Assembly: GCF_021155765.1 (NCBI RefSeq)
Contig: NC_060110.1
Location: forward strand, 3,162,001 to 3,226,000
Length of the DNA stretch: 64,000 nucleotides
Reading direction: 5' to 3'
Source of the DNA: Diprion similis
Lineage: Eukaryota; Arthropoda; Insecta; Hymenoptera; Diprionidae
Shown: in pieces, positions 41,901 through 52,070 of the stretch
Layout: every line of letters starts with the position of its first letter
Numbering within the stretch: position 1 is the first letter of the stretch
The notes under the pieces: generated by a model
The model's input: the letters and a program-made list of their open reading frames with translations, nothing else
What the model was told of the DNA's origin: nothing
The model's database searches: none
Position numbers and translations under genes: made by a program

Positions 41901-44900
41901 TCGAGGACGTGAAGCTCGCAATTTAAACAGTCGTCACATTGTTGGATGTTGTTGATTTATTTCACAAAAGTTATACGCTTTTCAACTTCATTTTCACTCT
42001 TGGATTTTCAGTTCTTCCAATTCAGTGTATCTTGAGTATGAAATAATGAGAAATGATGAGCCGATGACGAGACTGAATAATCATCAGTGCTGCTATTTAT
42101 CGTTGAAGACGAGTATTTTGTCTTCTTGTGATAATAGCTGTATCTGTTGTTCGTTAAAGATGATTTGGCTGACTGATCTCTTGACTCAATTTACAGCACA
42201 TAATATATCAATTGTTGATTTTTGCTTGGAATCTTTATTTCCCTTCTGTTTTCTCCTTGTCTATGGAAATTTCTTTGATGCTTTAATGGATTCTATCCAC
42301 TTGAAAGTAATGTAAACCTGAGTTCATGACATTCAACAAATACAACGATAGTTTTTTGCGTTTGTTAGCCTTCACGATTCACGTAAACAAGAATAGAATA
42401 CCTTTTCCAAATTTGAGGTCGGATATTAATTTCCCCTTGCAGAAACGGCGAGTACAACGTATTCCGGCTACGACGCGGCGCTTTATAGCGCCGCGACCAT
42501 GTACGTAGCCCAACAGAGCGCAAACAGCAACACAACTAACCAAAAGTCTGGAGGTTGGCAGGGTTATGGCAGGAAGGGATTTGGCGCCGGAGGCGGAGCG
42601 ATGAAATCGATGCGTCCCAAGCAAACCCCCAAGCCTCAGCAGCTCCACTACTGCGATGTCTGCAAGATTAGCTGTGCTGGACCACAGACGTACAGGGAGC
42701 ATTTGGAGGGGCAGAAGCACAAGAAAAAAGAAGCCTCTCTGAAGGTGCCGCAGCAGCCACCTGCCCGGGGAGCTGGAAACTCTCTTCGATGTGAACTATG
42801 CGACGTCACATGCACAGGGAACGACGCCTACGCAGCTCACATCAGGGGAGCGAAGCATCAAAAAGTTGTCAAACTTCACACCAAATTGGGAAAGCCAATT
42901 CCAAGCGCTGATCCCACCGTTCTCAATCCTAAACCAGCTGCTGTTGCCAAGGCAACTGTTACCAAAAAAGCAACGGTCACCGCAACACCTAAGATTAATT
43001 TTGTTGCGTGTAAGTACTCATGTTTCATCTTTTTATTAACAATGTATGTCTTTGTCGTTGTACTAATTTTGGAACGCCTAAATCGTAGTATGATTTCGTA
43101 CTTACTGGATGGGAATCTCGTGTGACCAACCGGCTGTACCAGACTTCGTTTTGGCATTATTTTGCAAAAAAGGACACTTATTCAAGTATTGACAGCACAA
43201 TTCTACACATGAACAAAAAAAAAAACCTTCAGTTTGGTTCTCTTTAAGTTTACATCTTGAAAATTAATATGTGTAATGGAAAATTCATACATAAACTTTT
43301 GCAAAATTTATAATCTTTCAAGAACATAATTGTCTTGACATCCTTTGATAAATTATCAAAGTTGCGTTGCAGATTCCGAGAACATGCAACTTCACATAAC
43401 TCTCAAGTGCCGAAAGCAAAGACAGAAGTGAATTATTTCCATCATGGTTTTTTTTTTTTTATAAATGAAGTGGGTTTAAATATAAACCCTTGAATGAGAC
43501 AACCTTTTAATAATGTTGAGAAAATTAGCATATTCAGCACCAATCGCATCTATATACTGTAGAATTTGTAGGAAAAACAAAGCTAATTACAAACATCAAT
43601 CCAAAATAGTTCGCAGACTCCAATTTTATGCAGTTGGTACAAGTAGAGTCAATTTTTTTTATATGCAGGTTTGATGATGAAATTTTCACATCAACAACGT
43701 CATTCATAAAGTGTACAATTTACAATATCTAATATTGAATCATGGAATATGCTATTTCAATTCTTCTTCCAAATTGGAAGAAACTCTTAGTCCCTAGGTA
43801 TCAAAACTGGACTCTCAAACATTTTACAATTAATATTTAATCCAACAATATGCCTTTCTATGTTTCCCATTTTTAAATTAGCAGACAATTCATTGAAAAA
43901 TATATTTATAATTTTGTACACGAAGGTGACAAAAGTTTAGATTTTCTATTAGAATCTTTGTGTTCAAGTTTTATTTCGTTAAAATTAGCAACTGAGTAAA
44001 ACATTTTATTCATTTTATTCTGGTTTCTATTAAACACTTCGAGTTCATTTGAAAAAATAAAATTGAGCGAAATTTAGTATAACAAACTATAAACAATATA
44101 CTTTAACGTATAAATTATTATAATACAGAAACGATACAACCAAATAGTAAAATCGACTTCAAGTGAAGATGGAATTTATTTTCTTCATTTATTAGTGAAT
44201 TAGACTGCCCTGTTTGAGAGACATGAGAGAACACGTACTTGTGAAAATTGTACTAGTATGAAACACATGAATGAAGTTTTAATGAATCGATGTTATACTT
44301 TATACGATAACACACTCACGCTGGCATGTCGAGCGGAGTGGAAAATAAAGTAATCATTGAATTTTCGGTTGTCGAAACAAATGTGGTTGAATTAGTTAAT
44401 ATTCTGGCATTACGTTTTTGAGTAAAATTGTCTAGATCTTTTGTTGACATGTGTTTTATCTTACAGCTGGGAATCTTGGAACTGTGGCTCAACCTCCAGT
44501 AACTGGGGAAGTCAAAGTAGAAGAGCCAGTTGCAGATGACACTAGTGAAGATGCCACGATTGACGAAAAAGACATTCAACCAGTGGGTCAAGAGTATATA
44601 GAAGAAAACAAATCTGAAGACGGAAAGATCATCAGTTTCAACTGTAAATTATGTGAATGTAGATTCAACGATCCAAACGCAAAAGACATGCACATGAAAG
44701 GGAGACGGCACAGATTTGCATATAAAAAGAAGGTGAACCCTGATCTCGTTGTTGACATGAAACCAAGTCTAAAGCAGCGGAAAATGTTAGAAGAGAAACT
44801 CCGTCGACAGCAGATGCGCGACGAGTACATGCGCCGTAGAGAAGAGATCAATCAGTTGGGTCCTATAGGACCAATGGGACCGATGATGGATGAGGAAATG

Positions 44901-50900: not shown

Positions 50901-52070
50901 TTCTCTTTTTCTTTCTTCTCTTTTTTTTTTTTTTAAATATTTATTTTCAAAATGTGTTAGTGACATTTAAAAGTGTTTCACCTTTATTGCAGGCATTGGA
51001 GTTGCTGGCTGAAAAAGTGATCAGCACTGCTGGAGGACCTCTGAGCCCAGGAGAAGCACTGAGACGCCTTTTGGAATGTGTAGCTGGTGGTATACTACTT
51101 CCAGGAAGTCCAGGTATTGGCATAAAAAATAAGAAACTATAATAATAATAATAATTTCCATTTCGGTGATTGAAATTGAGATATGATGAGCCGATGACGA
51201 GACTGATCTTGTTATACACTCACTTAATGATCTTGAATACAAGTATTTTGTGTTCATTGTATTATTAGTGACGTCTTTAACCTTGATAAGATGATTTGGC
51301 ATACTGATCTCTTCATAAGTAACCGAGAAGAAGAACCGTATTGTTCATATTTATTAATGATCATAATATTGTTGTTTAGAATTTGTTCTCATCAGATAAT
51401 AGAAATTCTTAATAAATTTTCTAACGCTTGTTCATTTTTATTGTTGAACCAGTCATTATCAATTTACATTTGTTCGATCAAATTTTGAAGCAAACTGAGG
51501 ATCTTTTTCGTAAAATTGAACTCAGTCCGCGAAACTTGAACTGCGAAATAAAACGTACATAACACCTAATTTCCAGAGTAGAACAAAATGAATATTGCAA
51601 GCAGAATTAGAAATTATGGAGATTTAAATACTTGATTCGCCTTATTTATGTTGGTATTGTAATCAAATCTATGATATCGTAAATATGCTGTGTGTTTTCA
51701 TTCTTTCTAATCATTTTTTATGCAATCAATTCTACGATGCAAATATCTATAGAATTGCAACAATTAATTTGAAGTTATTTCACCAGGTCTGCTTGATCCA
51801 TGTGAAAAGGAGCCGGTCGACGCTATAGGAAACATGACAGCCCAACAAAGAGAGGACATAACTTCATCGGCGCAGCACGCACTACGATTGGTCGCATTTC
51901 GTCAAATTCACAAAGTCCTTGGAATTGAGCAGCTACCACCTCCAAAATACAAGGGTCGTTTTGCGCGTAAGCGCAGACGTGACAATAGCAATTGTGAAGG
52001 AACCGACAGTGAAGCCTCGAAAAAGGACAAGAAAGCTGAAGAAATTAAAATGGAAACAGACGCAAAATAA
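35981..52070 (+). CDS. Zfr / Zn72D zinc-finger RNA-binding protein
   Basis: Eleven coding exons in continuous phase: 35981-36030, 36304-36467, 37795-38136, 42443-43009, 44467-45192, 45642-45945, 46418-46605, 47727-47875, 49697-49792, 50993-51113, 51787-52070; 996 residues. The start reads [17 protein letters not shown], matching the NYFGFTH start of animal ZFR. An Ala/Tyr/Gln/Thr-rich region (about 1-250) is followed by three widely spaced U1-type C2H2 fingers (CDVC about 256, CELC about 302, CKLC about 434). An Arg/Glu coiled stretch, a Pro-rich linker and a C-terminal DZF domain from about residue 586 ([14 protein letters not shown] … [11 protein letters not shown] … [15 protein letters not shown]) complete it. 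The tail is basic then acidic (KRRRD … KKDKK). ZFR/Zn72D is a nuclear double-stranded-RNA-binding protein acting in alternative splicing and A-to-I editing. Introns 3 and 10 hold candidate snoRNAs. The exon 3 acceptor is the least certain boundary. Confidence 0.95.
38647..38747. mobile_element. pogo/Tigger-like MITE in Zfr intron 3
   Basis: Left end CAGTGCACTCTCTCAATAGG and the inverted right end (complement CAGTATACTCTCTCAATACA) share CTCTCTCAATA and a following CCGCT. CAGT(A/G)(T/C)ACTCTCTC-type ends are typical of pogo-family elements. TA follows on the right (38748-38749). It is 101 bp, non-coding, intronic. Confidence 0.65.
42048..42180 (+). ncRNA. Intronic box C/D snoRNA candidate A (Zfr intron 3)
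   Basis: About 133 nt. Box C ATGATGA (42053-42059), box D' CTGA (42073-42076), a degenerate C' (ATGATTT, about 42160-42166) and box D CTGA (42173-42176). GAGA just before box C (42048-42051) pairs with TCTC just after box D (42177-42180), forming the terminal stem. The 12 nt before D' (GCCGATGACGAG plus A) would be the guide. A central hairpin GAAGAC…GTCTTC sits between D' and C'. It lies 262 nt upstream of Zfr exon 4 in sense orientation, as expected for a host-intron snoRNA. A paralogue is in intron 10. The target is unknown. Confidence 0.65.
47146..47190. repeat. (TA)/(TG) microsatellite in Zfr intron 7
   Basis: A mixed TA and TG/CG dinucleotide run. Confidence 0.85.
49335..49520. mobile_element. 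MITE with CCGGGTGTTT ends, TA target
   Basis: The perfect 10 bp ends CCGGGTGTTT and AAACACCCGG are flanked by TA (49333-49334 and 49521-49522). It is 186 bp, non-coding, in Zfr intron 8. Ends and target suggest a Tc1/mariner-type non-autonomous element. Confidence 0.75.
51178..51311 (+). ncRNA. Intronic box C/D snoRNA candidate B (Zfr intron 10)
   Basis: About 134 nt, a paralogue of 42048-42180. Box C ATGATGA (51183-51189), D' CTGA (51203-51206), C' ATGATTT (51291-51297), box D CTGA (51304-51307). GAGA (51178-51181) pairs with TCTC (51308-51311). The stretch from box C through D' is identical to copy A, and box C to D spacing differs by one base. The central hairpin is GAATAC…GTGTTC, where copy A has GAAGAC…GTCTTC, so the changed bases still pair. 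It lies 64 nt after Zfr exon 10. Confidence 0.65.

What the first reader, a model, noticed from the sequence alone, without database searches (positions are those of the whole stretch)
42048..51311. Two paralogous box C/D snoRNA candidates in Zfr introns 3 and 10
Segments of 133 and 134 nt, 9 kb apart and both in sense orientation in introns of one gene, share an identical block from box C through D'. They have the same C-to-D' spacing (20 nt), C-to-D spacing of 120 and 121 nt, identical box D surroundings and a GAGA/TCTC terminal stem in the right place. The rest of each intron is unrelated. Intronic paralogues in one host gene are typical of snoRNA duplication. I do not recognise the family.
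Basis: partly seen in the sequence, partly recalled or inferred. Interest (0 to 1): 0.8.

Follow-up and report, generated by a model that had tools for sequence, protein, structure and literature searches.

The report
Duplicated rRNA-methylation guide in Zfr introns
Two introns of the Zfr gene each carry a copy of a small guide RNA that most likely directs methylation of one conserved position in the large ribosomal RNA; it is a diverged relative of a known family, so it is real but fairly ordinary.

Summary
Two sense-strand segments (42048-42180 and 51178-51311), in two introns of a Zfr-like gene, share a 24-nt block from box C through D', a 13-nt block before box D, and a GAGA/TCTC terminal stem. 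In the readable part of the 269 Mb genome three searches found these cores at these two places only, so they are not a dispersed repeat. The D' guide pairs over 9 Watson-Crick bases with 28S rRNA of the same genome. The 5th-nucleotide rule points to the G equivalent to yeast 25S Gm2288, which snR75 guides; 20 of 23 listed yeast modified residues fit that register, next best offset 15 of 23. The 80-nt D'-C' linker folds into a hairpin with 5 compensatory changes between the copies. Best reading: a duplicated intronic C/D guide RNA, diverged from snoZ5, that methylates this 28S G. Expression and methylation are untested. New member of a known kind.

The parts
42048..42180 (+). copy A, whole C/D RNA candidate (133 nt), in the Zfr intron 38137-42442
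51178..51311 (+). copy B, whole C/D RNA candidate (134 nt), in the Zfr intron 51114-51786
42048..42051 (+). A: 5' arm GAGA of the terminal stem, with TCTC 42177-42180
51178..51181 (+). B: 5' arm GAGA of the terminal stem, with TCTC 51308-51311
42053..42059 (+). A: box C ATGATGA
51183..51189 (+). B: box C ATGATGA
42063..42071 (+). A: D' guide GATGACGAG, 9 WC pairs with 28S CTCGTCATC
51193..51201 (+). B: D' guide GATGACGAG, identical
42073..42076 (+). A: box D' CTGA
51203..51206 (+). B: box D' CTGA
42092..42138 (+). A: linker hairpin, helices 2 and 3
51222..51269 (+). B: linker hairpin, with 5 compensatory changes against A
42157..42163 (+). A: C'-like box AAGATGA (6 of 7 to RTGATGA)
   Evidence: box assignment is inference
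51288..51294 (+). B: C'-like box AAGATGA
   Evidence: box assignment is inference
42163..42169 (+). A: ATTTGGC before box D; complementary to 28S GCCAAAT next to the D' target, or its TTGGC to GCCGA 42060-42064 of the same RNA
51294..51300 (+). B: ATTTGGC before box D, same two possibilities
42173..42176 (+). A: box D CTGA
51304..51307 (+). B: box D CTGA

Best explanation
Both segments are intron-encoded box C/D guide RNAs, two paralogues of one diverged relative of snoZ5. After splicing, the intron is presumably trimmed to the terminal stem and bound by the common C/D proteins (inferred). The guide upstream of D' (GATGACGAG) pairs with CUCGUCAUC of 28S rRNA and places the ribose methyl on the G five nucleotides from D', the residue equivalent to yeast 25S Gm2288. 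The long linker forms a hairpin that brings D' next to the C'-like box (inferred). Shown: boxes, spacing, stem, copy number in readable sequence, family similarity, rRNA complementarity and register, compensatory changes. Inferred: expression, processing, methylation.
For: Boxes and stem. End-to-end snoZ5 matches for both copies, 39.8 bits E 4.4e-4 and 26.9 bits E 0.3. 9 WC pairs at -2 to -10 of D', the longest pure WC run found in 1486 nt of 28S and in a 4301-nt stretch that begins at 18S. The -5 target is the residue equivalent to yeast Gm2288: 20 of 23 yeast modified residues shown in the table passages of PMC8307265 agree at one offset, all 20 between 2191 and 2417; next best offset 15 of 23 (a first test on 12 of these gave 12 of 12, next best 10). 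Linker hairpin and terminal stem: 20 of 20 named pairs form in both copies, 5 with changes on both sides, and slid versions form 35-64%; linker energies are below those of 300 of 300 mononucleotide shuffles in both. Two places only in the readable genome.
Against: Neither copy reaches Rfam's gathering score (0 matches in the window; cut-off 60), and B's E of 0.3 is not significant alone. 25 of 300 shuffled guides reach a 9-nt WC run somewhere in the same rRNA, and with G-U pairs allowed an equal 9-nt run exists in the 4301-nt stretch; the register on a known site carries the weight. 3 of 23 yeast residues (2129, 2133, 2142) do not fit at that offset. 28S was readable only in part, and no intact copy of the site was readable: the pattern across GG/TAGCC gave 0. 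snRNAs were not scanned. In the free-RNA minimum-energy folds part of the guide is paired inside the RNA. 19 of 500 column shuffles match the covariation measures. No expression data; methylation in this species is not shown.
Confidence: 0.9

Rival explanations
1. One copy is the working gene and the other a decaying duplicate.
For: Duplication in one host gene is common (general knowledge). B scores lower against snoZ5 (26.9 vs 39.8 bits) and its D-side pairing is shorter (7 vs 8 WC).
Against: Both keep the boxes, the stem and an identical guide while the linker diverged in a structure-preserving way (5 of 20 pairs changed on both sides, 2 on one side, none broken). That argues for selection on both, or for loss too recent to see.
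Confidence: 0.1
2. An intronic element of another kind, e.g. a splicing-regulatory or repeat element, that only resembles a C/D RNA.
For: Sub-threshold in Rfam; expression untested.
Against: No other copy found in the readable genome; boxes, snoZ5 similarity and 28S register coincide.
Confidence: 0.03

Closest known systems
snoZ5 (Rfam RF01226)
   Same: C-D' block nearly identical (AUGAUGA..GAUGACGAGACUGA), AAGAUGAUU.GGC before box D, full-length alignment of both copies.
   Different: Bits 39.8 and 26.9 against a gathering score of 60; linker about 20 nt longer and a stronger hairpin (A -23.4, B -18.8; snoZ5 consensus linker -8.9 kcal/mol).
yeast snR75 (25S Gm2288)
   Same: Same predicted target nucleotide (table passage of PMC8307265).
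   Different: No sequence comparison made; homology not claimed.
Drosophila snoRNA:Me28S-G2596
   Same: By recalled numbering (A2564, A2589, G2596 against yeast 2256, 2281, 2288) it should target the same G; it may be the fly snoZ5. Both points are recalled, not tested.
   Different: It is listed among exonic snoRNAs (PMC5932544, passage); its sequence is not held, so not compared.

Membership tests
box C/D snoRNA | box C RTGATGA and box D CTGA near the ends, joined by a terminal stem | tested here: met
   4-bp stem, same in both copies
box C/D snoRNA | internal D' with a guide of about 9 or more bp to a stable RNA, target at the 5th nt | tested here: met
   9 WC bp to 28S, target G equivalent to yeast Gm2288
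box C/D snoRNA | C' box with usual C'-D spacing | tested here: inconclusive
   C'-like AAGATGA ends 9 nt before D; the snoZ5 consensus has the same spacing (read)
box C/D snoRNA | stable trimmed RNA bound by fibrillarin, Nop56/58 and 15.5K | not testable with these tools
   no RNA data
snoZ5 (RF01226) | score at or above Rfam's gathering cut-off of 60 bits | tested here: not met
   39.8 and 26.9 bits; 0 matches at gathering
snoZ5 (RF01226) | end-to-end alignment with the conserved C-D' guide block | tested here: met
   model 1-113 of 113 in both copies

The most novel reading that the evidence does not exclude
The conserved ATTTGGC before box D is a second antisense element. In copy A the two elements would clamp 18 of 20 contiguous 28S nucleotides (UAGCCAAAU GC CUCGUCAUC, one G-U pair included), in copy B 16 of 18, and A's stretch starts at the insertion point of R2-type elements; the RNA may then act as an rRNA folding chaperone as well as a methylation guide.
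Probability: 0.15. Interest if true: 0.4.

Novelty: new member of a known kind. Interest (0 to 1): 0.2.

Why it matters
Practical value lies mainly in annotation.

Tried and rejected
Dispersed repeat: rejected, 2 places in the readable genome. Further copies in the window: the R1 model, built from the two copies, lists 6 rows up to E 10; the two copies have 157 and 156.5 bits, the next best 13.1 bits, E 0.29. A strict box scan of both strands (RTGATGA, CTGA, stem of at least 4 bp) listed 3 candidates: the two copies and a minus-strand 54881-54733 without an inner CTGA, not followed.

First target idea (the yeast Cm2197 site of snR76) dropped: by the yeast numbers it lies 91 nt before Gm2288, while the guide faces Gm2288.

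D-side guide as a second methylation guide: doubtful. Best WC runs are 8 (A) and 7 (B); 68 of 300 and 180 of 300 shuffled guides reach as much, equally long WC matches lie in the 4301-nt stretch, and with G-U pairs 10-nt runs lie there at other places. Its TTGGC can instead pair with GCCGA of the same RNA, and the snoZ5 consensus keeps that inner pairing better than the rRNA pairing (read by eye).

Full report
Observation. The alignment has 134 columns and 82% mean column identity by the tool's measure; A against the genome finds B at 74% identity. The 24-nt block from box C through D' is identical; about 5e-5 such pairs are expected by chance in this window under independent bases.

Host. Five read-through segments were scanned. 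Two match zf-met and zf-C2H2_jaz, one of these also DZF_N below Pfam's cut-off, two match DZF_C, and the fifth is polyubiquitin. The first four fit Zfr. Splice sites read from the sequence put A in an intron 38137-42442 and B in 51114-51786 (an undetected small exon inside the first was not excluded). Intron numbers were not checked.

Copy number. DNA search of the 269 Mb genome gave 2 matches; the C-D' core pattern 2 (0 for the reversed control); the D-side pattern with up to 2 mismatches 2. They are these two copies. Withheld stretches read N, so a copy there would be missed.

Family. At Rfam's gathering scores the window has 0 matches. With E-value up to 10 on the two loci, 11 rows were listed; the best is snoZ5 RF01226 on A (39.8 bits, E 4.4e-4). 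B is matched by the same family in the same register (26.9 bits, E 0.3). Both cover model 1-113 of 113; the cut-off is 60. I therefore call them diverged relatives and do not file them as Rfam members.

Target. One readable 28S copy (L013, recognised as eukaryotic LSU) is split by a 3678-nt insertion between TTAAGG and TAGCC, the R2 site (site name recalled); two other loci, on C41 and C11, show the same 3' junction. No intact copy of the site was readable (0 matches), while GCCAAATGCCTCGTCATC occurs 4 times, three beside such junctions and one in a fragment. The D' target lies wholly in the 3' flank. Taking the two flanks of the L013 copy (1486 nt), the D' guide pairs over 9 WC bases (-2 to -10) with CTCGTCATC, which occurs once there and not in L029, a 4301-nt stretch that begins at 18S. 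25 of 300 shuffled guides reach 9 somewhere, and with G-U pairs a 9-nt run also exists in L029, so length alone is not decisive. The register is: of 23 yeast 25S modified residues from 2129 to 2417 in the table passages of PMC8307265 (bases taken from their names), 20 agree at one offset, which are all those from 2191 to 2417, and 3 (2129, 2133, 2142) do not; the next best offset has 15. A first test on 12 of them gave 12, next best 10. The 5th nucleotide from D' then faces the G equivalent to yeast Gm2288, guided there by snR75 and marked as an inter-subunit bridge position in that table.

Structure. The linker folds into a hairpin in both copies, below 300 of 300 mononucleotide shuffles each. 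On the named structure 40 of 40 cells pair, 5 of 20 pairs change on both sides and 2 on one side; 19 of 500 shuffles do as well, and slid versions fall to 35-64% paired. Because the structure was derived from these same two sequences, this leans in its favour. The snoZ5 consensus linker also folds, more weakly (-8.9 kcal/mol; 12 of 300 shuffles do as well). In the minimum-energy fold of the whole free RNA part of the guide is paired; proteins and target are not in that calculation.

Second element. ATTTGGC before box D is identical in both and complementary to 28S GCCAAAT, 2 nt from the D' target. Run length is not significant (68 of 300 for A, 180 of 300 for B), and equally long WC matches occur in L029. 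Its TTGGC can pair with GCCGA of the same RNA. I leave it open.

Verdict. A real, duplicated intronic C/D guide RNA candidate, related to snoZ5, very probably aimed at a conserved 28S methylation site. Expression and methylation are not shown.

Noticed in passing
L013:1332-5009 (G000:C34): A 3678-nt insertion splits 28S between TTAAGG and TAGCC, the R2 retrotransposon site (site recalled; the element's proteins were not examined). The same 3' junction is seen on C41 and C11. The possible D-side pairing of copy A begins at this junction.
   Followed up: partly
window 56662-59445 (+): A polyubiquitin gene of 12 ubiquitin repeats downstream of Zfr; 503 of 510 repeated 24-mers of the window fall in the 56-60 kb bins.
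   Followed up: no
L002:2892-2951 (about window 52569-52628): A weak SNORD73 match (26.6 bits, cut-off 42, E 0.27), probably chance.
   Followed up: no
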